32,426 nucleotides of DNA from contig JALUWJ010000270.1 of the NCBI GenBank assembly GCA_027019605.1, positions 1 to 32,426 of the forward strand. Direction: 5' to 3'. A model generated the notes under the pieces. It did not search any database. It saw nothing but the letters and a program-made list of their open reading frames with translations, and was not told the origin of the DNA. Within the stretch, counting starts at the first letter, position 1. Each line of letters opens with the position of its first letter. Source of the DNA: Henriciella sp. (lineage in GTDB: Bacteria > Pseudomonadota > Alphaproteobacteria > Caulobacterales > Hyphomonadaceae). Below, piece after piece: positions 3,754-16,386 of the stretch. Position numbers and translations under genes: made by a program.

Positions 3754-5052
3754 TTACAGGCTTTGCAATCGGTCCTTCACTGCCGCCGAAACGGCAACAT
3801 GGACCTCTTCTGGAAAATGTGGCGGCAACTCGCCTTCGATCCTTTCAATTGCGACACCGACAGCGTCGTGCATTTGGGCTAGAGCGTCATGCACGAGCGT
3901 TTTTGAAAGCCCGACCTTGTCAGCCATTTGCAAGAAGTGCCGTCCATGGATTTCGTCGATGCGGTAGTGATTATTGGTCCCCGCCGACATGGCAAGCTTC
4001 ATCTGCTTTCGCTCAATCTGTCCGGCCGCAAGGCTCGGCTGGGCTGTCAGGATGTCGTATAGCGGCGTTAGGCGATATGTCCCGTCAGGCCCCAGAAATA
4101 CGCTGAAGTTCTTGGCATGGCCATCAGTGGCACTGATAAGCCAAAACAGAATTTGCGCTTTGAGCACTGTCATCTGGTCAGCTTGTGGGTCATCAGCACC
4201 TTTTAGCAGGGTGAGAATGTCTTTTAGGGATGGCCCGCCGTCGCTTTGATATTTGCGGGTGGGAGGCACCGAAAGCGCTTGGCAGAAATCCTCTTGGGGC
4301 AAGCGAAACAAGGTGCCATCCGCGCGCCATTTCCGGTCAAACCGTTCGATGACAAGCGCTTTTGTGTCGCCAAATGTTTCTATGTCTGCGTGTGCAACTG
4401 CAAGCCCACATAGGGCGGCAAGCTTCAGGCAATAGAATTCGTTCTCGACGCTGTTGGACAGATCGATCCCGTTTGGCAACGCGCCAATCTGAGTTTTGAA
4501 GATATGTGTCGTTGGCGTCGTACCGTGCGGCTTAAGCCATTGTCCGTTATAGCGAAGCAGTGCTGTTTTTTCCTGTGCGCCGGCAACTGAAATCCGAAAC
4601 GGATCATCCCTACTTAATCCCAGCGGTGCTTGCACCAACCCCTTCAGCACCCGCTCGATAGCAAGATCGTCTATTTCTTCTCCGACAATGGTGCCTGTCT
4701 GATTGGGCTCATCATCACCGGCGACGAACTGCAACGCGCCGACGCAGTCTTGCCCAATGGCACTAAGGAGACTGTAAGCATCCGTTCCAGCAGCGCCCAC
4801 TTTGTCGGCGACGCGGCTGCGCAATGCATCCAGATCCGGCAAAAGATTGTCGAACACCGCGATGACCGCTGACCCACGATAGGCATCTTCACGAAGTGGC
4901 AGTGACAGCGAGACCGGAAGTGCTTTGTCTGCGGCTAGCCAGCCCTCGTCGTATTGGAACGCAACGGCTCCGTTTGCTTCTTTGGTCAGGTGGCCGACCA
5001 GCTGATTGTTCAGGAGCACGCGCAAGGGCGGGTGTTGGCGGTGGCGCGGCAT
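3754..5052 (-). CDS. hipA: HipA-type serine/threonine kinase toxin
   Basis: Toxin of a type II toxin-antitoxin pair. Characterised HipA kinases phosphorylate glutamyl-tRNA synthetase and cause growth arrest; the target here is unproven. Visible motifs: the SVAGAQEKTALL segment (155-166), whose Ser155 matches the autophosphorylation site of E. coli HipA; ATP-binding Lys186 in THIFK; catalytic Asp310 in SATDGHAKN with Asn315; and metal-binding Asp333 in TPLYDI. The 432-residue length is close to E. coli HipA (440). The first codon overlaps the last base of the hipB stop (TAATG), so translation is coupled and the antitoxin is made first. It is transcribed from the hipB promoter. All kinase residues are intact, so it should be active. 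It converges on the nitrilase-like gene with a 97-base gap. Confidence 0.95.
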   Translation of the reverse strand: MPRHRQHPPLRVLLNNQLVGHLTKEANGAVAFQYDEGWLAADKALPVSLSLPLREDAYRGSAVIAVFDNLLPDLDALRSRVADKVGAAGTDAYSLLSAIGQDCVGALQFVAGDDEPNQTGTIVGEEIDDLAIERVLKGLVQAPLGLSRDDPFRISVAGAQEKTALLRYNGQWLKPHGTTPTTHIFKTQIGALPNGIDLSNSVENEFYCLKLAALCGLAVAHADIETFGDTKALVIERFDRKWRADGTLFRLPQEDFCQALSVPPTRKYQSDGGPSLKDILTLLKGADDPQADQMTVLKAQILFWLISATDGHAKNFSVFLGPDGTYRLTPLYDILTAQPSLAAGQIERKQMKLAMSAGTNNHYRIDEIHGRHFLQMADKVGLSKTLVHDALAQMHDAVGVAIERIEGELPPHFPEEVHVAVSAAVKDRLQSL

Positions 5053-5303
5053 TACAGCAGCTCCTCGATATCTGCGGGGCTGCTCTTGCGCCTGGCTGAT
5101 ATCTTGAGCTCGAGGTCTAGTGCCGCGAGTACCCGTAAGAGCGTGTCGAGCTTGGCGGCACCGTGGCCGGTTTCGATAAGGGAAACCGTCGCCTGCCGTA
5201 GCCCGGCCTTGTCAGCCAGCTCACCTTGGTTCCAACCGTGCTTTTTGCGGACGCGGCGAATAAGGGTGCCGATTTGTAGCGGTGTCCGGGCGAGATGGTC
5301 CAT
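5052..5303 (-). CDS. hipB: HipB-type XRE antitoxin and autorepressor
   Basis: An 83-residue XRE helix-turn-helix protein (helices in residues about 10-66; core NQGELADKAGLRQATVSLIE). In the Hip family it binds HipA, neutralises it and represses the operon. Start ATG at 5303 has a strong GAGGAG site six bases upstream. It is preceded by a good promoter and three operator-like sites at 5322-5393. The C-terminal tail (SARRKSSPADIEELL) is short and charged. Family assignment follows from sequence plus its coupling to hipA. Confidence 0.93.
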   Translation of the reverse strand: MDHLARTPLQIGTLIRRVRKKHGWNQGELADKAGLRQATVSLIETGHGAAKLDTLLRVLAALDLELKISARRKSSPADIEELL

Positions 5304-5573: not shown

Positions 5574-6500
5574 TCATCTGGAGACTGGCGGCATAATGAT
5601 GGTAGTACGCGTCAATGCAGCTACCGGGTAGAGAAGAATTATCACGTTGTAGGTGGTATCAAATGCCTCAGCGATGCATTCGTGCGCAATGCCGTTTTTA
5701 TCCGTTATCGCTAGCGTTGTCGGGCGGGTCATTTTTCGCCCGATTGGGATTACGCGACCTAGTTCGTGGTCCGGCGTGATCGTCGTATCTGTTGGAATCC
5801 CAAATTGCTCGCGAAATTTCGGCGAGGTTTCGATCCGGCGGACAGTTGCTCGAAAGCCGTCTCCTTCTACAAGTTCTACTCTCTCCAGAACGTAGACCGA
5901 GCATGCACGCGAGTTGGTACGCGCGAACTCTCGAGTAGACGCATAGATGGATGCACCAAATTTCTTTGCCAATTTGATTGGTGTCTTAATTTCGAACGCG
6001 CTATCAGCGGCTAGTTGCCGATATGTATCGCCCTTGAACAAGGTGAAGCGGGCAAAGTTGTTTGCTTCTCGCTCGAACTGATCTGCAATTTCCGGCGCCA
6101 GAGTTTTCTCGCAGTCTTGAAAGAAGCGAAACAGCTTCTTGTGAGTTGGCATCTCATGGTGGCCAGTCTCATGAAGCTTGAGAAATGTTTGTCTCGAAGC
6201 AACGACGCTGTCGTCTACGTGGATCAAATTTTCATCTGCATCGTAGAGTCCCAAGACTTTGGAAATTGCTGATTTGATGTTTTCCCGAGCGGAGGCTGCC
6301 TTGCCCGCAAGATATGCAACGAGGTTTGCCGGGTCGAAAGCACTATGCGGAGCAACTTTCACATTTGCAGCAATCAGCAAATCGTCCATCGGTATAGGAA
6401 AGCGATCCCAAGCATCTGCGCGGTCTAGAAGACCCTTTGCTCGCTCCTCCACGATACGGAGGTCTGCAGGATCAAGGCTACTATCGTCAGGTTTGGTCAA
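5574..6500 (-). CDS. ImmA/IrrE-family zinc metallopeptidase
   Basis: A 308-residue protein with HETGH at 110-114 (the HExxH zinc site) followed by a helix EREANNFA (143-150) that supplies the third Glu ligand, the layout of ImmA/IrrE peptidases. These enzymes cleave XRE-type repressors in mobile elements (ImmA acting on ImmR) or regulators after DNA damage (IrrE on DdrO). The start is TTG at 6500, overlapping the stop of the upstream XRE gene by four bases (TTGA), so the two are translationally coupled. The C-terminal half (about 190-308) contains a beta-rich region that could be a sensor, with no family I can name. Likely substrate: the adjacent XRE protein. Confidence 0.88.
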   Translation of the reverse strand: MTKPDDSSLDPADLRIVEERAKGLLDRADAWDRFPIPMDDLLIAANVKVAPHSAFDPANLVAYLAGKAASARENIKSAISKVLGLYDADENLIHVDDSVVASRQTFLKLHETGHHEMPTHKKLFRFFQDCEKTLAPEIADQFEREANNFARFTLFKGDTYRQLAADSAFEIKTPIKLAKKFGASIYASTREFARTNSRACSVYVLERVELVEGDGFRATVRRIETSPKFREQFGIPTDTTITPDHELGRVIPIGRKMTRPTTLAITDKNGIAHECIAEAFDTTYNVIILLYPVAALTRTTIIMPPVSR

Positions 6501-6901
6501 GAGCCCGGATTTCTGCTTCGAATAAATTCCAGATACTGCATTAATTCAACCTCTTCCTCATGGGTCAAATTATGCTCGGCGAAAGTAGCCACTCGTCCGT
6601 GACGTTCTTTTGTTTCACGCTGGTCAGCCGCGGTCACGTATCCTGCTTTTTCCATTAGGCTCTCAAAGCTAATTTTATACACATCGGAAAGAGCATGCAA
6701 AATATTTGGAGATGGTTGCTGTATTTTACCATTCTCAATTTGGCTCAAGTAGGCATTCGAGACTTGCTTACTCGTTTTATTTTCAACAGCTCTCAAACTC
6801 AAACCTCTGTCTTTTCGGATAGATGATAAGTATTTGCCGAGCGGCCCACCGGTAAGCGCCGTGTTGTTGCTTAGGGCGTCTTCTTCGCCTGTATTGGACA
6901 T
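6497..6901 (-). CDS. XRE-family transcriptional regulator paired with ImmA-like protease
   Basis: A 134-residue DNA-binding protein. Residues about 20-82 form an XRE helix-turn-helix (LGKYLSSIRKDRGLSLRAVE, then SNAYLSQIENGKIQQPSPN). The C-terminal helix (HEEEVELMQYLEFIRSRN) may dimerise or contact the protease. Start ATG at 6901 has an excellent AAAGGAGG site. Its stop overlaps the protease start. Upstream lie two palindromes shared with the divergent ubiquitin-like operon, so it probably represses both directions and is inactivated by the protease. The family is sure; the regulatory circuit is inference from gene order and operators. Confidence 0.9.
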   Translation of the reverse strand: MSNTGEEDALSNNTALTGGPLGKYLSSIRKDRGLSLRAVENKTSKQVSNAYLSQIENGKIQQPSPNILHALSDVYKISFESLMEKAGYVTAADQRETKERHGRVATFAEHNLTHEEEVELMQYLEFIRSRNPGS

Positions 6902-6936
6902 GGTGATCCTCCTTTAAGTCACTGTTATTTATGATG

Positions 6937-6966
6937 AATCTAGCACTCATGCGCTTGATACGTCAA
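6937..6966 (-). promoter_or_regulatory. Candidate promoter of the XRE-ImmA operon
   Basis: Minus-strand TTGACG (6966-6961) and TAGATT (6942-6937) are 18 bases apart. The -35 lies inside the first palindrome, so a repressor bound there would block it. The match to consensus is fair, not perfect. Confidence 0.5.
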
Positions 6967-6997
6967 GCATGCATAGAATTTGCTTGATATATCAAGC
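6953..6997. promoter_or_regulatory. Pair of 16-base operators between the XRE gene and the Ubl operon
   Basis: GCTTGATACGTCAAGC (6953-6968) and GCTTGATATATCAAGC (6982-6997) share the arms GCTTGA/TCAAGC around a four-base centre; the second is a perfect palindrome. Their starts are 29 bases apart. The first covers the -35 of the XRE promoter. The second contains TTGATA (6985-6990), which could be a -35 for the Ubl operon, with a weak TAGGTT 17 bases on (7008-7013). The layout suggests one repressor controlling both divergent operons. Confidence 0.72.
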
Positions 6998-7062
6998 GTG
7001 CTTTGTTAGGTTGGGTGTGTCTTCTGGATTGGCCAAAAGACAAACACCTTTTGGAGAAAACA

Positions 7063-7404
7063 ATGAAAGAGAGTGCTGAGCTTGAATCGCGCGACCCGGG
7101 CGAAGAGATCGTGTTGGACGACATCATCGACCTTGAAGAGTTTGCGAAGCGCGGAGAACGCCCTCCGCTTGCGAAAGGGTATCGCATGAGGATCAATGGC
7201 GAATCATACGTGATCCACGACCCCAAACCGACGGGGCGCGAGGTCCTGACCTTGGGCGGGCTTCTGCCAGCGGAGGAATACACGCTCCGCGTCAAACGGC
7301 CCGGTGAAAAACCAGAGAAAGTTGGATTGGATGAGGTCGTCGACCTTCGGAAGCGTGGTGTAGAGAAGTTCAAAGCGCTTCCTCGCGACCAGACGGAGGG
7401 CTAA
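7063..7404 (+). CDS. Multiubiquitin-type ubiquitin-like protein (single beta-grasp domain)
   Basis: A 113-residue ubiquitin-like protein resembling the bacterial multiubiquitin family. The beta-grasp domain spans about residues 40-105 (YRMRINGESYVI, VLTLGGLLP, YTLRVKRPG). The chain ends ...QTEG, so the last residue is a free Gly ready for E1 activation with no processing. Residues 15-38 (EIVLDDIIDLEEFAKRGERP) resemble the tail of the domain itself (EKVGLDEVVDLRKRGVEKF), as if an upstream repeat had been lost; multiubiquitin proteins normally have several domains. The ATG at 7063 has GGAG six bases upstream; the frame is open further left but without a ribosome site. First gene of a four-gene operon with E2-like, JAB-E1 and DUF6527 genes. 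Confidence 0.82.
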   Translation: MKESAELESRDPGEEIVLDDIIDLEEFAKRGERPPLAKGYRMRINGESYVIHDPKPTGREVLTLGGLLPAEEYTLRVKRPGEKPEKVGLDEVVDLRKRGVEKFKALPRDQTEG

Positions 7405-7407
7405 TCA

Positions 7408-7824
7408 ATGGAAGCTCGTCGCGATTTCGATCTTCTGCCCGAGGACGAAAAGTTTCTCAACGAATACAATCTGCCATGGGAGACGATAACTGATGGTTCG
7501 CAGTGGGTACTAATCCACAATTTTCCCTCACAGCATGAAGGTTACAACCATGGGACGGTGACGATCGCGATCCGGCTTGAGACGGGATATCCAAACACCC
7601 CCTTGGACATGGTGTACGTCGATCCACCGCTGGCTCGACGGGATAGACAGGCGATCGGAGCCACCAATGCGCACCAGAATATTGCCGGCAAGACCTATCA
7701 GCGTTGGTCTCGGCATCGGACCGCGCAAAACCCCTGGCGGCCCGGCGAAGACGGGATTTCCTCTCATGTCTTCCTGATTGAGGATTGGTTTGCGCGGGAG
7801 TTTGAAAAATGCCCGCAAAGGTGA
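7408..7824 (+). CDS. E2/UBC-like protein (prokaryotic family E type)
   Basis: A 138-residue protein resembling bacterial E2-superfamily family E. Signs are the opening LLPEDEKFLNEYNLPWE, the core YPNTPLDMVYVDPPL and the conserved QRWSRH...W.PGEDGI..H segment (about residues 97-119). In this operon type it would pass activated Ubl from the E1 to a target. The only Cys is Cys135, three residues from the C-terminus, so the fold core has no obvious catalytic Cys; the His-rich segment may act instead, or the protein may be a non-catalytic adaptor. Start ATG at 7408 has GGAGGG seven bases upstream, inside the last codons of the Ubl gene. Its end overlaps the JAB-E1 gene by 16 bases. Confidence 0.8.
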   Translation: MEARRDFDLLPEDEKFLNEYNLPWETITDGSQWVLIHNFPSQHEGYNHGTVTIAIRLETGYPNTPLDMVYVDPPLARRDRQAIGATNAHQNIAGKTYQRWSRHRTAQNPWRPGEDGISSHVFLIEDWFAREFEKCPQR

Positions 7825-9221
7825 CACTCGGTTTATCCGGCGACCAGCACGCACATCTGAGGAACTTCCTCTTTCCACCTGATGGCAAAGAAGCAATAGC
7901 AATTCTTCTTTGCGGCCAACGGGATGGTGACAGGCGGTATCGACTATCGGTTCGTGAGATACATGAAATTCCCTATGAGTATTGTACCAAACGAACGACC
8001 CAAATGGTGACGTGGTCACCAGATTACGTTGACGATATTCTGGAGCGCGCGGCGACAGAAAAATTGTCAGTGGTCAAAATTCACAGCCACCCAAATGGGT
8101 ACGCGAAATTCTCAGAAACAGATGACGAAAGCGATGATCGCATTCTGCCTATGATCCGAGGCTGGGTGGAAGCCGACCTGCCACATGGAAGCGTTGTGAT
8201 GCTTCCAGGCGGTCAAATGTTCGGGCGAGTTCTGCGAGATGGAGCTGTTGAACAGATCGAGTGCATTAGTGTGGCAGGTGACGAACTGCACTTCTGGTAC
8301 GCCGACGCTGAAGGGTACGAGGCGCCAAGCTTCGTTGCCTCGCATGCTCAGGCATTTGACGAAGGCACTATCGAACGCCTGCAGCGGCTATCCATTGGAG
8401 TGGTAGGCGCTTCTGGTACTGGCAGCCCAACGATTGAACAACTGGTTCGGCTTGGTGCTGGCGAGGTAGTCATGGTTGATGACGACACAACGGAAGATCG
8501 TAACATCAACCGCATTTTAAACTCGACGATTCAAGACGCGAAAGAAGGGCGCGCCAAAGTCGATGTAATTGCCGACTCAGTAATGCGCATGGGCTTAGGA
8601 ACCAAAGTTGTCTCGATCAACAAAAACTTGTGGGATCCCGATGTTGTGCGAGCTATCGCCCAATGCGATGTCTTGTTTGGGTGCGTAGACTCAATTGATG
8701 GACGGTACTTACTGAATGCGATCTCGACTTTCTACAACATTCCATACTTCGACTTAGGTATTCGCTTGATTGCTGATCCGAAAGGTGAAAACCGAGGGCG
8801 AGTTCGGGAGGTGTGCGGAACTGTCAACTACATCCGGCCGGGACGCTCAAGCCTCATGAGTCGTGGTCTTTTCACGATGCAAGGTGTTGCTGCGGCGGGC
8901 TTGGCCAGGAACGATCCGACAGCCCATCAGCGACAGGTAAAGGACGGCTACATCAAGGGCGTTCAAGGAAGTCGACCTGCTGTTATTAGTGTCAACATGC
9001 TCGGTTCTGCGTTGGCGGTAAATGAGTTCCTGGCGCGGCTTCATCCTTACAGAGAGGATGCAAATTGCACTCATGCCGCTGTCACATTCAGTCTGGCAAG
9101 CATGGAGCTGATTAGCGACAGCGAAGAGGGCATCTGCTCTATTTTGAGCTCTTGGGTTGGCGCTGGCGATATGAAGCCTTTGTTGCGCGAAATGGGTTTG
9201 GCAGAAAGGCGGAAGGCATGA
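7809..9221 (+). CDS. JAB/MPN peptidase fused to ThiF/E1-like adenylyltransferase
   Basis: A 470-residue two-domain enzyme. N-terminal JAB domain (about 1-150): the JAMM zinc motif is intact with His92 and His94 in KIHSHP, Ser102 and Asp105 in FSETD, as in deubiquitinases. C-terminal ThiF/E1 domain (about 175-470): nucleotide loop GVVGASGTGSP, acidic strand VVMVDDDTTEDRNINR, the CVDSIDGR segment, and Cys336 in EVCGTVNY as a possible thioester Cys. It should adenylate the Ubl C-terminal Gly, and the JAB part should trim or remove Ubl. Start ATG at 7809 has GGGAG seven bases upstream. It overlaps the E2-like gene on the left and the DUF6527 gene by four bases (ATGA) on the right: a tightly coupled operon. 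Confidence 0.92.
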   Translation: MPAKVTLGLSGDQHAHLRNFLFPPDGKEAIAILLCGQRDGDRRYRLSVREIHEIPYEYCTKRTTQMVTWSPDYVDDILERAATEKLSVVKIHSHPNGYAKFSETDDESDDRILPMIRGWVEADLPHGSVVMLPGGQMFGRVLRDGAVEQIECISVAGDELHFWYADAEGYEAPSFVASHAQAFDEGTIERLQRLSIGVVGASGTGSPTIEQLVRLGAGEVVMVDDDTTEDRNINRILNSTIQDAKEGRAKVDVIADSVMRMGLGTKVVSINKNLWDPDVVRAIAQCDVLFGCVDSIDGRYLLNAISTFYNIPYFDLGIRLIADPKGENRGRVREVCGTVNYIRPGRSSLMSRGLFTMQGVAAAGLARNDPTAHQRQVKDGYIKGVQGSRPAVISVNMLGSALAVNEFLARLHPYREDANCTHAAVTFSLASMELISDSEEGICSILSSWVGAGDMKPLLREMGLAERRKA

Positions 9222-9559
9222 ATTTTCTGCGTACCGCCATCCGTCGCATTTGGGCGACACTAAGCGATTGGTTCATTCCGCGCTTTAAGACCTTAGTAGT
9301 TGAAGAATTGGCTCCCCAGCGGCTTAGAAAGCGGACTCTCTACATCGTGGAAGAAGATGGCTACGAGGAACAAGCAGTAATGGTGTGTCCCTGCGGTTGC
9401 GGGTCAACTCTTCAGATGAATTTGCTGAGTGATGAACGCCCCTGCTGGAAGGTGACACGGCATGCGGATGGGACTGCAACGTTGCATCCATCTGTATGGA
9501 GAAAGAAAGACTGTGGTTCGCATTTTTGGTTTCGTAAGGGACGTGTTCAGTGGTGCTGA
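9218..9559 (+). CDS. DUF6527-like Cys-rich protein of the Ubl operon
   Basis: A 113-residue protein with CPCGCG near residues 58-63 and CGSHFWFRKGRVQWC at the C-terminus, a pattern that looks metal-binding and matches what I recall of DUF6527, a family seen beside bacterial ThiF and multiubiquitin genes. The N-terminal 23 residues (MNFLRTAIRRIWATLSDWF) could form an amphipathic helix that touches membrane or partner. Start ATG at 9218 overlaps the E1 stop (ATGA). Its job is unknown; a zinc-bearing partner of the E2-like protein or target selector is possible. It is the last gene of the operon; no clear terminator follows. Confidence 0.72.
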   Translation: MNFLRTAIRRIWATLSDWFIPRFKTLVVEELAPQRLRKRTLYIVEEDGYEEQAVMVCPCGCGSTLQMNLLSDERPCWKVTRHADGTATLHPSVWRKKDCGSHFWFRKGRVQWC

Positions 9560-11990: not shown

Positions 11991-12233
11991 CGCGCCACAA
12001 CCGCGCCACAAGATGTGGCGTGTCTAATCGGTGTGCTGAAGGTTTGTGCGGGTTGCGGAAGGTCACTTATGACCCGTGCCACAATCGCTTTTGTGTGAAT
12101 ATGAAAATTGAAATGACATCTAAGTCATTGATTTTATTCTGGTGGGCGGTACTGGGATTGAACCAGTGACCCCTTGCGTGTCGAGCAGAATAAGTCTGTG
12201 TTTTTTCAGACGGTTGTCTGCTCCGCGCCACAA
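11991..12233. repeat. Four 10-base direct repeats, candidate integrase arm sites
   Basis: CGCGCCACAA occurs at 11991-12000, 12002-12011 and 12224-12233, with a one-mismatch copy CGTGCCACAA at 12075-12084. They flank the tRNA fragment at 12140-12180 and the last lies in the final codons of the integrase gene. Short direct repeats on both sides of a core crossover are the arrangement of arm-type sites of tyrosine integrases. The 330-base stretch 11876-12205 otherwise holds no gene. Confidence 0.55.
12140..12180 (-). other. Attachment site: 3' fragment of a tRNA-Val-like gene
   Basis: On the minus strand this is the 3' half of a tRNA: 3' anticodon-stem strand GCAAG, variable loop, T-arm ACTGG-TTCAATC-CCAGT, acceptor strand ACCGCCC, discriminator A and encoded CCA. 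The anticodon side is broken: position 33 would be C instead of invariant U, the 5' stem is mismatched, and D-arm and 5' acceptor strand are absent. It resembles alphaproteobacterial tRNA-Val (anticodon ending AC). Such fragments mark the far junction of an island integrated into a tRNA 3' end; the integrase gene ends only 26 bases away. Confidence 0.75.
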
Positions 12234-13429
12234 GATGACACATCGCTGTGCGCTCCAAGGTCATCCAGCAATCCAAACCGAGGGCGGTCGCTGTCGGCGT
12301 CTTCAAGGAGATGTCCATATGTGTCCAGCGTCGTCTTGATGCTTTCGTGACCCATCATTGTCTGAATCTTTTTGAGGTCGAGCTTCTTGGCGATCAACAT
12401 CGAAGCGAAGAAGTGGCGCAAGTCATATGGTCGAAACTTCGGCCGGGCTACATCCCGTCCATTGATCTTTACGTGCCGCACCAACCCAGCCTCAAGGCAT
12501 GCAGCATCGAAGCCGCGCCGTTGCCAGTTTTTCCGACATTGCCATTTGCCGTCGGTGGTCGGGAAGACCAATCCGTACTCGCTTTGTGGTGCGTAAAGCC
12601 GCACATAGTGTTGAACCATGTCGATTGTGCTAGCGCTCGCATCAATCATGCGGCGACCCGCTTTGGTTTTGGTCACTGAGATGCTGCGACCGTCGCCCGC
12701 GATGGCTTGTTCCACGCGAATCCCGCCATCCACAACACAATGCCTCGGCAAGCCCAAATACTCCTGTGGGCGCATGCCTGTATCGGCTGCCAGATAGAGC
12801 ATGGGCCGGTATCTTTGCCAGGCACGAGCGGTTGTTCCATTCGGTGAGTTGGCAAGACGGTCGGCTGCGCCCAGTAGTGCCAAGATTTCGCCTTTGCTGG
12901 GAATGACAACGGGCTCGTCGTAGCGCGTATCCGTTCGGATGGTTATCCCAGCCGCAATGTTAGTGGGGATGATGCCTCGCACTGCCATCTCCTTGAGAAC
13001 TGAATGGAGAGTGACCATGACCTTTTGGGCGGTTATGCGGCTGGGTGCAGTGCGCAGGAGCCAAGATCGAAAGGCCGCGATGTCAGGCGCCGTAAGCTGC
13101 CAAAGCTCTTTGCCCCAGTCATGCAGCAAAATGAAATCTGCCCGATAGGCGTAGTTTGACAGCGTATAGGATGTGACAGGCTCTCCACCATTGAGGCCTT
13201 CGCGCTTGCAAGTGCGCAGCCAGAGCGCTACCGCGTCGCTGAATGTGCGAATGCCGGAAGGGGACGAATGCATTGATACGCGCTGTTGCGTTTCGTTGTG
13301 AAAGGCGTGCGCCTGCTTACGCGTGGAGAATGTCTTATAAGCGTAGCCGGACTTCGTGGCCGGATTCCGGAAACGCACTTGATAGGTCAGACTACCGTCT
13401 TTGTTCTTTCGCTTTCTAATGTCAGGCAC
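12206..13429 (-). CDS. Tyrosine site-specific recombinase (integrase of the right-hand element)
   Basis: A 407-residue integrase. The N-terminus (PDIRKRKNKDGSLTYQVRFR) is an Arm-DNA-binding-like domain, then a SAM-like core-binding domain (about 60-155) and the catalytic domain. Active-site residues: Arg220 in DTGMRPQE, a Lys at 254 or 256 in TKTKAG, Tyr335 and Arg338 in PYDLRH (box II with Tyr in place of His, as in many phage integrases), His361 in GHESI and nucleophile Tyr371 in DTYGHLL. The start is GTG at 13429 without a ribosome site; a good promoter places transcription start about at this codon. The gene ends next to the tRNA-Val fragment, so it probably integrates there. Confidence 0.93.
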   Translation of the reverse strand: MPDIRKRKNKDGSLTYQVRFRNPATKSGYAYKTFSTRKQAHAFHNETQQRVSMHSSPSGIRTFSDAVALWLRTCKREGLNGGEPVTSYTLSNYAYRADFILLHDWGKELWQLTAPDIAAFRSWLLRTAPSRITAQKVMVTLHSVLKEMAVRGIIPTNIAAGITIRTDTRYDEPVVIPSKGEILALLGAADRLANSPNGTTARAWQRYRPMLYLAADTGMRPQEYLGLPRHCVVDGGIRVEQAIAGDGRSISVTKTKAGRRMIDASASTIDMVQHYVRLYAPQSEYGLVFPTTDGKWQCRKNWQRRGFDAACLEAGLVRHVKINGRDVARPKFRPYDLRHFFASMLIAKKLDLKKIQTMMGHESIKTTLDTYGHLLEDADSDRPRFGLLDDLGAHSDVSSCGAEQTTV

Positions 13430-14442: not shown

Positions 14443-16386
14443 ATGTCTATCCGAACAGTTGTTCTCATGTTGACAGTCTTGTGCAGCTCCACGGCCATTG
14501 CTGGCGTAGCCGACGCCAAGGAGCGGTTGACGGTCATGACTTTCAATGTCGGCAATCTCTTCGATTGGATTGACGACCCGAACGTCCCCAATGGTCGTGG
14601 AGGAGAAACTGTTGGCCGCACCGAACAGTCGGTTAGAGCGCACGCCCAAAACGTTGCCAGGGTCGTCGGCCGCGCCGATCATCAAAATGGTCCTGACATT
14701 CTGGTTTTCACAGAAGTAGAAAGCGATGCGGCGCTGGGCGCCCTGCAGGATGCACTTCGCGACGAGGGGCTTGAATATGCATCGACCTACTTCGAAGACA
14801 GCGAAGTAAATCGCGATGGCGTAAAGCCCGATCAGCGAGGGATTGATATCGCGATCCTATCGAAGCTGCCAAAGCACGCAGATCAATCAGATCCGATAAT
14901 CCACCCGATCAATCTCGAACCAATCCAAGTCTGTAGACGTAGGTCCAGTGGAGATGTTGTTTATACAAGGGACATTGTTGAGGGCAGTTTCCTGCTTCCC
15001 GACAACACCACACTAACGGTTCTCGGTGTGCATTTTCCCTCTGGCGGGAACGACGTCGCGTGCCGGAAAGAAGCCTTGCAGACAGCCAAAGCCGTTGCGC
15101 AGACCAAGTCGCACTCGACCATCATTGTGGGTGATTTCAACTTCAATTGCGGTGAAGACGAACAGGCCGCTCTAGATGACGTCTTGAATGGCTGGCATCT
15201 CCCATCTGCGCGCACCAATCGATGCCGCGGACACGGCTCGCACTATTTCCACAAGAACAAGTCCTGGTCTTGGTTGGATCTTGTCACGCAGGCCAACGAC
15301 CGCACGCAGGCCTGGCAAATCGACAGCGCCACCTTCCGGCCAGTTCTGACAGCGCAAGAGCAATTCTTTTGGGACAGATCCCAGAAGGTCCTAAGGCCTA
15401 GCTCATTCAGAGATAACAATGGGCGCGGTGTTTCAGACCATTTCCCGGTCATGATTGATTTGGTCAAACAGGAACCCAATGAACGTGCAGATTTGGCGCC
15501 TAGCATTACGTTACCTTCAGCTTGCCGCTACACGCCCAAAGAAGTGACCGGTACGGTTCAACGAAGAACAAGCTCCCTGGCGGCCGCAAAGGAGCTTGCT
15601 CTAGAACTCGCAGAATCCCGGTCGCCAAGCGAAGTCCTCGTGGTCTTTGACATCGACAATACCCTCCTGACTTCTGCCCAGGATTTTGGATCAGTTCCCT
15701 GGTTCGACTGGCAAGACCAGATTCGTAAAAAGAGTGAGTGTGTCGCTTACGCCGTTCCAAACAAACAAATCTACAACATCGTCCGGCTCGGCTATGCCTC
15801 AGGCGATATGGTCGAAACAGAATCCACTACCGACGAACTCATCGATGAGCTCGCAAATGTGAACGGTTTCCCCGTCATGGCACTTACTGCTCGCGGCCCT
15901 GACAATCGCGATGCCACCATGCGTGAGCTGGAGGAGGATGGCTTAGTGTTTCCAACAGCGCCGTCGTGCAAAGGCGACGGCGGTTGGCTCTGTCAAGGTG
16001 AGCGCATCATCTCCGGTAAAGAACTTGAGACACGCGCAGCAGGCAACCAGCAACTGGAGATGGGCTCCTATCGAAACTTGAGTTTCAACGACGGTGTCAT
16101 GATGGTCACCGGCATGAACAAAGGCGTGATGCTCCGGCTGCTGCTGGACGAAATCAAAGAAGATATCTCCGCCGTCGTATTCGTTGATGACGGCCCCAAG
16201 AACATCATCCATATCCAAGATGCATTCGCCAATGACTCAGCAGTCGAGGTTCGACCCATGCTGTACACGCGTTTCGATGAGGCTAACGCAGCGTATCTAA
16301 GTGATACCGATCGATTGGAAAACTCTATTGCACAATGGCACATGATGTCGGACGCCATCTGCGCAATCACCGGCAGCGGGTGCTGA
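14443..16386 (+). CDS. Secreted EEP nuclease/phosphatase fused to HAD-type (DUF2608-like) domain
   Basis: A 647-residue exported protein with two phosphohydrolase folds. Residues 1-25 are a signal peptide with likely cleavage after VADA. Residues about 27-345 form an endonuclease/exonuclease/phosphatase domain: TVMTFNVGNLF, metal Glu in LVFTEVESD, VHFPSGG, IIVGDFNFN and terminal SDHFPV. Residues about 380-640 form a HAD-type domain: nucleophile motif FDIDNTLL near 402, ALTARG for motif II, the KGVMLR Lys, and FVDDGPKN near 577; it resembles the secreted DUF2608 group. All catalytic motifs of both domains are present. GGGGG lies about eight bases before the ATG. The fusion suggests sequential hydrolysis of an extracellular nucleic acid or phosphoester. 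Substrate unknown. Confidence 0.85.
   Translation: MSIRTVVLMLTVLCSSTAIAGVADAKERLTVMTFNVGNLFDWIDDPNVPNGRGGETVGRTEQSVRAHAQNVARVVGRADHQNGPDILVFTEVESDAALGALQDALRDEGLEYASTYFEDSEVNRDGVKPDQRGIDIAILSKLPKHADQSDPIIHPINLEPIQVCRRRSSGDVVYTRDIVEGSFLLPDNTTLTVLGVHFPSGGNDVACRKEALQTAKAVAQTKSHSTIIVGDFNFNCGEDEQAALDDVLNGWHLPSARTNRCRGHGSHYFHKNKSWSWLDLVTQANDRTQAWQIDSATFRPVLTAQEQFFWDRSQKVLRPSSFRDNNGRGVSDHFPVMIDLVKQEPNERADLAPSITLPSACRYTPKEVTGTVQRRTSSLAAAKELALELAESRSPSEVLVVFDIDNTLLTSAQDFGSVPWFDWQDQIRKKSECVAYAVPNKQIYNIVRLGYASGDMVETESTTDELIDELANVNGFPVMALTARGPDNRDATMRELEEDGLVFPTAPSCKGDGGWLCQGERIISGKELETRAAGNQQLEMGSYRNLSFNDGVMMVTGMNKGVMLRLLLDEIKEDISAVVFVDDGPKNIIHIQDAFANDSAVEVRPMLYTRFDEANAAYLSDTDRLENSIAQWHMMSDAICAITGSGC

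What the first reader, a model, noticed from the sequence alone, without database searches (positions are those of the whole stretch)
6497..7404. XRE/ImmA switch probably controls a divergent ubiquitin-like operon
Two near-identical 16-base palindromes (6953-6968, 6982-6997) lie in the only intergenic region between the XRE-ImmA pair and the Ubl operon. One covers the XRE -35, the other a possible Ubl-operon -35. ImmA-type proteases destroy XRE repressors on a signal. This predicts a Ubl conjugation system kept off until infection or damage triggers cleavage.
Basis: inference. Interest (0 to 1): 0.75.

Follow-up and report, generated by a model that had tools for sequence, protein, structure and literature searches.

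The report
Protease-repressor switch beside ubiquitin-like operon
A bacterial repressor gene and its partner protease gene sit back to back with a ubiquitin-like protein-tagging operon, and the short shared stretch of DNA carries a pair of repressor-type sites kept in many relatives; this matches a known kind of DNA-damage switch for bacterial defence genes, so it is a good example of something largely known.

Summary
Two inverted repeats, GCTTGA-N4-TCAAGC at 6953-6968 and 6982-6997, lie in the 161-bp gap between a divergent XRE/ImmA pair and a four-gene ubiquitin-like operon. The second is a perfect 16-bp palindrome; the first is symmetric only in its 6-bp arms. In the 3.37 Mb of genome held (84% complete) the pattern occurs nowhere else. 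The pair is CapH+CapP-like; the operon is Bub-like. In a sample ranked by similarity, 38 of 84 usable loci, window included, have a CapH-like gene divergent and close upstream; 35 of these have the protease too. TCAAGC-N10-15-GCTTGA occurs in 22 of the 38 and 0 of the other 46 (about 0.01 expected in each group). Five fused XRE-ImmA loci carry another motif, so the site seems to follow the regulator. Best reading: an autoregulated repressor occluding back-to-back promoters, removed by protease cleavage, probably on ssDNA. Binding, cleavage and induction were not tested. CapW or CapH+CapP beside Bub operons is in print (219 of 544, PMC13373217, passage), so this is a new member of a known kind; the conserved operator pair is the extra detail.

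The parts
5574..6500 (-). ImmA/CapP-like M78 metallopeptidase, 308 aa, TTG start overlapping the XRE stop codon; HETGH at residues 110-114
   Evidence: Pfam Peptidase_M78 5.8e-6; PADLOC capP 1e-12, its best hit there; profile of 27 relatives finds PDB CapP 7t5t at 6e-18 as best hit; HExxH in 31 of 31 aligned rows
6497..6901 (-). XRE/CapH-like repressor, 134 aa: N-terminal HTH (about 20-86), low-confidence linker (96-108), C-terminal helix (114-130)
   Evidence: Pfam HTH_3 6.2e-9; PADLOC HTH_VI 5.1e-10, then capH 2.6e-6; PDB: immunity repressor 8bny 1.2e-5, ClgR 5woq 3.6e-5, CapH HTH domain 7t5u 1.8e-4; model of mean pLDDT 73.7
6953..6968 (.). left operator candidate GCTTGA-TACG-TCAAGC; its right half is invariant in aligned relatives, its left half is not
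6982..6997 (.). right operator candidate GCTTGATATATCAAGC, perfect palindrome; left half invariant, right half 0.88 mean pairwise identity in aligned relatives
6961..6966 (-). -35 TTGACG of the XRE gene, inside the left operator
   Evidence: TCAA at this place in 16 of 16 aligned regions
6937..6942 (-). -10 TAGATT of the XRE gene
   Evidence: TAGAAT in 9 of 16 aligned regions (read as ATTCTA on the plus strand)
6984..6989 (+). putative -35 TTGATA of the Bub operon, inside the right operator
   Evidence: read from sequence; TTGATA, TTGACA or TTGACG at this place in 16 of 16; not reported by the scan
7007..7012 (+). putative -10 TAGGTT of the Bub operon (weak match)
   Evidence: read from sequence; 4 of 16 aligned regions have CATATT and 1 CATACT here
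7063..7404 (+). BubA-like ubiquitin-like protein with one Multi_ubiq domain, 113 aa, ending in Gly
   Evidence: Pfam Multi_ubiq 1.5e-16; PDB: best hit Ubl-BilA of Methylobacterium 8u38 3.6e-11, then two multi-ubiquitin proteins, then Citrobacter BubA 1.4e-6
7408..7824 (+). BubB-like E2 (Prok-E2_E), 138 aa
   Evidence: Pfam 6e-40; PDB Citrobacter BubB 1.5e-25
7809..9221 (+). BubCD-like JAB peptidase-E1 fusion, 470 aa
   Evidence: Pfam ThiF 4.5e-27 and Prok-JAB 1.6e-7; PDB Citrobacter BubCD 2.6e-90
9218..9559 (+). DUF6527 protein, 113 aa, overlapping the E1 stop codon; last gene of the operon
   Evidence: Pfam DUF6527 7.9e-24; found in 85 of 87 surveyed sequences; no PDB match up to E 1

Best explanation
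This is a CapH+CapP-type switch on a Bub (bacterial ubiquitination-like) operon. The XRE protein (CapH-like) binds, probably as a dimer, to two 16-bp sites 29 bp apart. Each site covers the -35 box of one of two back-to-back promoters, so one bound state represses both the regulator genes and the Bub operon. When ssDNA builds up after DNA damage, the M78 metallopeptidase (CapP-like) becomes active and cuts the repressor, most likely in the linker between the HTH and the C-terminal helix. Both promoters open; the Ubl, E2, E1-JAB and DUF6527 proteins are made, and newly made repressor resets the switch when the signal ends. Supported by comparative sequence evidence: gene identity, divergent linkage, the operator pair, its position on the -35 boxes and its tracking of regulator type. 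Inferred from characterised relatives: dimer binding, repression, ssDNA activation, cleavage, reset.
For: Family: PADLOC capP 1e-12 and capH 2.6e-6; CapP 7t5t is the best PDB match by profile, 6e-18, before PprI/IrrE 4.7e-13; Foldseek of the CapP model (mean pLDDT 85.4) finds IrrE 3dte 5.9e-10, PprI with ssDNA 8sln 1.2e-9 and CapP 7t5t 4e-7; HExxH in 31 of 31 rows of A6. Operon: Citrobacter BubCD, BubB and BubA. Linkage: 38 of 87 surveyed sequences (84 with enough upstream DNA) have the XRE divergent within 700 nt of the Ubl domain, 35 with ImmA next to it. Reverse direction: the 12 best of 27 plasmid records with this CapP lie beside a Ubl/E2/E1 operon: 10 with an annotated multiubiquitin gene, 1 unannotated record with an E2 match, 1 (Deinococcus L114) with E1- and E2-like genes but no Multi_ubiq hit (8 viewed; 4 by coordinates). 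Operators: 22 of 38 against 0 of 46, chance 0.012 and 0.014 loci, and none anywhere in the 49 loci outside the 38; half-sites invariant in 16 of 16 aligned regions, 45-nt core 0.70 pairwise identity against 0.48 elsewhere, 0 of 10,000 permutations; 5 of 5 fused XRE-ImmA loci carry GTTTAC-N20-45-GTAAAC instead, found in no other of the 84 loci (four of the five regions are close to each other); the same pair of sites stands before a differently built Ubl operon in S. fredii L113 and before non-Ubl genes in L119; only exact target in the genome held.
Against: No binding, cleavage or expression data. TTGA inside the half-site is also -35 consensus, so part of its conservation is expected from promoters alone; the flanking GC, the AGC half and the absence from the other loci are not. 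The left palindrome's left half is poorly conserved (0.41 pairwise identity). 16 of 38 CapH-type loci lack the motif: 5 fused, 2 without a peptidase hit, the other 9 with other or degenerate sites as judged by eye. L022, whose E1 is among the closest to the window (72%), has the XRE and peptidase genes about 1.2 kb upstream of the Ubl gene with another ORF between and no motif at all; L096 and L097 are alike in place, L069 has them in the other direction. The motif's spacing range was set after looking at relatives, so the count is not blind. The sample is the 80 best of 259 E1 relatives plus 6 plasmid loci and holds near-duplicates (L016 and L027 have identical regions). The XRE protein's best PADLOC hit is HTH_VI and its best PDB hits are other XRE repressors. 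Foldseek TM-scores are modest (0.54-0.68) with rmsd of 5.9-7.6 for the first five. The window CapP alone matches PDB CapP only at E 0.083. L119 is a close CapH+CapP pair with the operator but without a Ubl operon.
Confidence: 0.8

Rival explanations
1. The XRE-ImmA pair is the regulator of the mobile element in which the window lies (like ImmR-ImmA of ICEBs1) and sits next to the Ubl operon by chance.
For: The window holds integrase, resolvase, relaxase and VirD4-like genes, and an ImmR-ImmA pair controls an ICE in S. mutans (PMC10233336, passages).
Against: The pair lies in the same divergent place at Bub operons of many genera, on plasmids and elsewhere. Within the roughly 5 kb of flank held, relatives of the window's neighbouring genes are few (integrase 12206-13429 0, resolvase 3, hipA 2 of 86 loci); the relaxase (4), VirD4 (2) and first integrase (1) counts say little, because in the window these lie further off than that flank reaches. 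GCTTGA-N4-TCAAGC occurs nowhere else in the genome held, so no integrase or transfer promoter carries the exact dyad.
Confidence: 0.08
2. The pair regulates only itself; the right site is just a second autoregulatory site and the Bub operon has its own constitutive promoter.
For: The Bub -10 in the window is weak and is not reported by the scan.
Against: The half-site GCTTGA is invariant and at -35 spacing from a better -10 in 5 of 16 aligned regions; genes of other regulatory kinds (CapK-CapS, fused XRE-ImmA, sigma-like) lie upstream at other Bub loci.
Confidence: 0.07
3. The repressor is not cut: ImmA acts as a co-factor, or the switch answers to a signal other than ssDNA (for example a phage protein or small molecule bound by the C-terminal domain).
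For: Only distant members were tested by others; the profile match to PprI and CapP covers the N-terminal part only, and Foldseek also lists weak PAS/LOV-like matches.
Against: The HExxH motif is kept in 31 of 31 rows of A6; CapP and PprI are ssDNA-activated proteases that cut their partner repressor (PMC13373217 and PMC10904395, passages).
Confidence: 0.15
4. The palindromes are something else, such as a terminator hairpin or recombination site.
For: 6981-6998 is reported as terminator-like on the plus strand, 1 found against 0.3 in the mean shuffle.
Against: It lies upstream of the operon, has a poor T run, and the conserved parts are half-sites placed on both -35 boxes.
Confidence: 0.02

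Closest known systems
CapH+CapP (CBASS-associated regulator pair; PDB 7t5t, 7t5u; now 'controller of associated/adjacent pathways')
   Same: Small XRE HTH repressor plus M78 metallopeptidase, next to and controlling a defence-type operon; the peptidase has CapP as best PADLOC and PDB-profile match, the repressor has capH as second PADLOC match and 7t5u as third PDB match.
   Different: Low pairwise sequence similarity (window CapP against 7t5t E 0.083); divergent from a Bub operon, not a CBASS operon; activity untested.
CapK+CapS on the Bub operon of Enterobacter roggenkampii (PMC13373217)
   Same: Regulates the same kind of operon, Ubl-E2 / ThiF / DUF6527 (L020); in that paper CapS binds palindromes over promoters and the CapK kinase is activated by ssDNA (passages).
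   Different: Kinase-phosphorylated winged-helix repressor encoded in the same direction as the operon; here a protease and an XRE repressor, divergent.
DdrO/PprI (IrrE) of Deinococcus
   Same: M78 peptidase with C-terminal sensor domain; ssDNA-stimulated cutting of an XRE-type repressor (PMC10904395, passages); Foldseek best hits 3dte and 8sln.
   Different: Radiation and DNA-damage response of Deinococcus (that it has many targets is recalled); here one exact target in the genome held.
ImmR/ImmA of ICEBs1 and TnSmu1
   Same: Repressor and anti-repressor protease in adjacent genes (PMC10233336, passages).
   Different: Controls ICE excision and transfer; here the pair recurs beside Ubl operons in different surroundings.
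Citrobacter Bub system (PDB 9ea4, 9ea5, 9ea8, 9eae, 9eav)
   Same: BubA, BubB and BubCD match the window Ubl, E2 and JAB-E1 proteins.
   Different: The regulator of that locus was not looked at here; the window Ubl is slightly closer to Ubl-BilA 8u38 than to Citrobacter BubA.

Membership tests
CapH+CapP regulator pair | XRE-type HTH gene directly followed by an M78/ImmA peptidase gene | tested here: met
   overlapping stop and start at 6497-6500
CapH+CapP regulator pair | sequence similarity to CapH and CapP | tested here: met
   PADLOC capP 1e-12 (best) and capH 2.6e-6 (after HTH_VI 5.1e-10); PDB 7t5t 6e-18 by profile; 7t5u 1.8e-4, third after 8bny and 5woq
CapH+CapP regulator pair | intact HExxH metal site and downstream acidic residue | tested here: met
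   H110, E111, H114 in 31 of 31; E or D at 143 in 31 of 31; E in 30 and Q in 1 at 145; which acidic residue binds metal was not determined
CapH+CapP regulator pair | CapP/PprI-like fold with C-terminal sensor domain | tested here: met
   Foldseek 3dte 5.9e-10, 8sln 1.2e-9, 7t5t 4e-7; TM 0.54-0.68, modest
CapH+CapP regulator pair | repressor binds the promoter of the adjacent operon | tested here: inconclusive
   footprint evidence only; no binding data
CapH+CapP regulator pair | ssDNA-activated cutting of CapH by CapP | not testable with these tools
   needs purified proteins
Bub operon | Ubl, E2, E1 and JAB homologues of characterised Bub proteins in one operon | tested here: met
   the papers that define Bub were not held, so the definition is taken from PDB names and PMC13373217 passages
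Bub operon | protein conjugation activity | not testable with these tools
   no assay; family activity recalled and from the titles of papers not held
Bil (BilABCD) | separate JAB (BilC) and E1 (BilD) genes and an E2 with catalytic Cys in a CEHH motif, as described in PMC11354881 (passages) | tested here: not met
   JAB and ThiF are fused in one ORF; no invariant Cys in ten aligned E2 proteins; against this, the best PDB hit of the Ubl alone is Ubl-BilA
ImmR/ImmA of ICEs | linked to integration and conjugation genes that it controls | tested here: inconclusive
   such genes are in the window; the exact dyad is found at no other place in the genome held; the flank comparison reaches only about 5 kb

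The most novel reading that the evidence does not exclude
This CapH+CapP subfamily is a near-dedicated controller of ubiquitin-like conjugation operons, with its own operator code: two 16-bp sites 28-30 bp apart that fuse autoregulation and Bub repression into one binding event on back-to-back -35 boxes. Bub conjugation would then be a DNA-damage-induced response in diverse bacteria, switched on by destroying one protein, and the same upstream place would be filled at other Bub loci by unrelated regulators, including a sigma-70-like class that the passages I read do not name (19 of 87 sequences, none of them with a CapH-type hit).
Probability: 0.43. Interest if true: 0.55.

Novelty: new member of a known kind. 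Interest (0 to 1): 0.38.

Why it matters
What Bub operons do is open: PMC13373217 (passage) says they have not been shown to protect against phage and may serve wider stress responses. A conserved operator pair with a protease-controlled repressor gives a concrete, testable handle (when is Bub made, and at what signal), and a consensus that can be used to find other targets of the same kind of regulator, such as the DUF3892-DUF2188 genes in L119.

Tried and rejected
Considered and set aside: mobile-element regulator (same place at Bub operons of many genera, no other exact dyad in the genome held; the flank test is weak, see rivals); terminator or recombination site; other copies of the operator in the genome (none exact; five other loose TCAAGC-N10-15-GCTTGA matches against 2 for the reversed-pattern control); PprI Arg85 equivalence (a basic residue is kept at CapP position 103 in 31 of 31 rows, and lines up with an Arg just before HExxH of PprI, but the numbering could not be matched to the paper, so no claim is made). 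The viral-contig scan for the operator gave 4 hits: L133 and L136 carry the same site, L136 next to CapH- and CapP-like pieces; L134 and L135 have no CapH-like hit in the stretch held. Phage records: no CapP match.

Papers: PMC13373217, PMC10233336, PMC12255303, PMC11354881 and PMC10904395 were read as passages only. Lau 2022 (CapH/CapP), Gong 2025, Ye 2026 and Chambers 2024 are not held, so whether the operator is already described there is not known to me. Paper searches. In one search (25 of 38 papers shown) three defence papers hold both CapH and ubiquitin: PMC13373217, PMC11153139 and PMC10419184; only the first was opened.
Full report
What is there. On the minus strand, 6901-6497 encodes a 134-aa XRE protein and 6500-5574 a 308-aa ImmA-type peptidase; stop and start codons overlap. 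On the plus strand 7063-9559 encodes four closely packed genes: a Multi_ubiq protein, a Prok-E2_E protein, a JAB-ThiF fusion and a DUF6527 protein. PDB sequence matches place the operon: Citrobacter BubCD (2.6e-90) and BubB (1.5e-25) are the best hits of the E1 and E2; the Ubl matches Citrobacter BubA (1.4e-6) after Ubl-BilA 8u38 (3.6e-11) and two multi-ubiquitin proteins. I call the operon Bub-like: JAB and E1 are fused and ten aligned E2 proteins have no invariant cysteine, unlike Bil as described in PMC11354881 (passages).

The observation. The gap between the two gene sets is 161 bp (6902-7062). GCTTGA-N4-TCAAGC occurs at 6953-6968 and 6982-6997 and nowhere else in the 3.37 Mb of own genome held (84% complete). 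Two same-half-site dyads within 60 bp arose in 0 of 200 shuffles of the window. The left site contains the XRE -35 (TTGACG, 18 nt, TAGATT). The right site contains TTGATA, 17 nt before TAGGTT, a weak promoter that the scan did not report.

What the pair is. PADLOC gives capP (1e-12) for the peptidase; for the XRE it gives HTH_VI (5.1e-10) and then capH (2.6e-6). A profile of 27 peptidases finds CapP 7t5t (6e-18) before PprI/IrrE (4.7e-13, 1.6e-12); the window peptidase alone finds 7t5t only at 0.083. The AlphaFold2 model (mean pLDDT 85.4) is closest to IrrE, PprI-ssDNA and CapP, with modest TM-scores (0.54-0.68). HExxH is kept in 31 of 31 aligned rows. The repressor model is weaker (mean pLDDT 73.7, pTM 0.50): an HTH domain, a low-confidence linker at 96-108 and a C-terminal helix; its Foldseek list is led by RghR and ClgR and includes DdrO and, lower, the CapH HTH domain. 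The linker and start of the helix carry a conserved RHGR-x-ATFAE-x-NLT stretch, a candidate cleavage region by analogy with the cleavage-site loop of DdrO (PMC10904395, passages); this is inference.

Linkage in other genomes. The E1 alignment found 259 relatives in genome contigs, of which the best 80 were kept; with 6 plasmid loci and the window this makes 87 sequences. E1 was found in 87, E2 in 86, Multi_ubiq in 85, DUF6527 in 85, CapH-like XRE in 42, CapP-like domain in 54. In 38 the XRE is divergent and within 700 nt of the Ubl domain; 35 of these have the peptidase next to it, in 5 as one fused ORF. Three loci had too little upstream DNA. Four XRE hits fall outside the 38: in L022, L096 and L097 the pair lies about 1.2-1.3 kb upstream with other DNA between, and in L069 it runs in the operon's direction; L022 is among the closest loci by E1 (72%) and has no motif. 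The sample leans to near relatives of the window and holds near-duplicates (L016 and L027 have identical regulatory regions), so these are not prevalence figures.

Going the other way, tblastn with the peptidase found 27 plasmid records. The 12 best lie beside a Ubl/E2/E1 operon: 10 with an annotated multiubiquitin gene, one unannotated record with an E2 match, and one Deinococcus record (L114) with E1- and E2-like genes but no Multi_ubiq hit (8 viewed; 4 by coordinates). The other 15 were not viewed. In a class sample, 3 of 385 genomes matched, own included: of the other two, L120 faces a Bub operon and L119, a 3-kb contig, faces DUF3892 and DUF2188 genes. A phylum sample gave 2 of 398, own included, the other weak and not examined. 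Phage records: none.

The operators are conserved and follow the regulator. TCAAGC-N10-15-GCTTGA is present within 400 nt upstream in 22 of 38 CapH-type loci and 0 of 46 others; dinucleotide shuffles predict 0.012 and 0.014 loci. It is found nowhere in the whole stretches of the 49 loci outside the 38. In an alignment of 16 regions, window included, chosen from the motif-bearing genome-contig loci, the half-sites at 6963-6968 and 6982-6987 are invariant, the right half of the right site has 0.88 mean pairwise identity, and the 45-nt core has 0.70 against 0.48 elsewhere (0 of 10,000 column permutations reach this). Against a simple two-palindrome picture, the left half of the left site is poorly kept (0.41). 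The XRE -10 is TAGAAT in 9 of 16; the Bub -10 is CATATT in 4 and CATACT in 1 of 16. All 5 fused XRE-ImmA loci carry GTTTAC-N20-45-GTAAAC instead, seen in no other of the 84 loci, though four of the five are close to each other; other subtypes show yet other dyads (L053, L039). The same pair of sites stands before a differently built Ubl operon (L113, separate JAB gene) and before the non-Ubl genes of L119. So the site goes with the repressor type, as expected of its operator. Caveats: the spacing range was chosen after seeing relatives, TTGA is also -35 consensus, and 16 of the 38 lack the motif.

Mechanism. One repressor-bound state would block both promoters, giving autoregulation and Bub repression together. 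Cutting by the peptidase would open both. PMC13373217 (passages) states that CapP is activated by ssDNA and cuts CapH, and that 219 of 544 Bub operons are associated with CapW or CapH+CapP; PMC10904395 (passages) reports ssDNA-stimulated cutting of DdrO by PprI. Applying this to the window is inference. PMC13373217 also says Bub operons have not been shown to protect against phage, so 'infection' as trigger is open.

Is it instead the mobile element's own regulator? The window has integrase, resolvase, relaxase and VirD4-like genes. Few relatives of the window's neighbours occur in the other loci, but those loci reach only about 5 kb to each side, so the test is weak for genes further off. The recurrence of the pair at Bub operons of many genera and the lack of another exact dyad in the genome argue against it.

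Novelty. The association and its logic are in print; what is added here is a specific operator pair, its position over both -35 boxes, its tracking of regulator subtype and its single exact occurrence in the genome held. I could not read the CapH/CapP paper itself or the Bub papers, so part of this may be known.

Side observation. Among loci outside the 38, 36 upstream minus-strand ORFs were picked and scanned; 9 match Sigma70_r2 and 4 match Peptidase_M78. A profile grown from one of them finds a sigma-like family in 19 of 87 sequences, never together with a CapH-type hit, upstream on the opposite strand in 18 of the 19. Two Bub neighbours are UvrD helicases with an N-terminal M78 peptidase domain (L033, L059). 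These look like further regulator classes for Bub operons and deserve their own study.

Noticed in passing
L018, L038, L060, L067, L070, L072, L075, L081, L082, L084, L086, L088, L090, L092, L093, L099, L100, L101 (upstream of the Ubl gene); L045 7816-8448 (downstream): A sigma-70-like protein family is encoded near the Bub operon in 19 of 87 sequences, upstream on the opposite strand in 18, and never with a CapH-type XRE hit. It may be another regulator class for Bub operons.
   Followed up: partly
L033 624-4148, L059 3-2843 (Pfam); L018 1-3156, L094 3-3311, L123 753-4163 (own M78 profile only): Large ORFs near Bub operons with an ImmA/M78-like domain; in L033 and L059 it is the N-terminus of a UvrD helicase, and L033 also has a PD-(D/E)XK nuclease domain.
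   Followed up: partly
L119 1280-2336: CapH+CapP pair with the same operator facing DUF3892 and DUF2188 genes instead of a Ubl operon.
   Followed up: partly
L022 1903-4309: A close relative of the window operon in which the XRE and peptidase genes lie about 1.2 kb upstream with an acetyltransferase-like ORF between, and without the operator motif.
   Followed up: partly
L021 3115-4111: The CapP gene of this Rhizobium plasmid is split into two ORFs, so the switch there may be stuck off or the record has an error.
   Followed up: no
L136 12889-13561 and L133 63-97: CapH- and CapP-like pieces and the operator pair on a viral contig (L136); an identical site at the edge of another contig with the same sample number (L133).
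   Followed up: partly
window 3754-5303: HipB-HipA toxin-antitoxin-like pair beyond the CapP gene.
   Followed up: no
window 14443-16386: One ORF joining an endonuclease/phosphatase-type domain to a DUF2608 domain.
   Followed up: no
window 7408-7824: Prok-E2_E proteins have no invariant cysteine but an invariant WSRH motif in ten aligned, so the E2 chemistry may differ from the usual thioester route.
   Followed up: no
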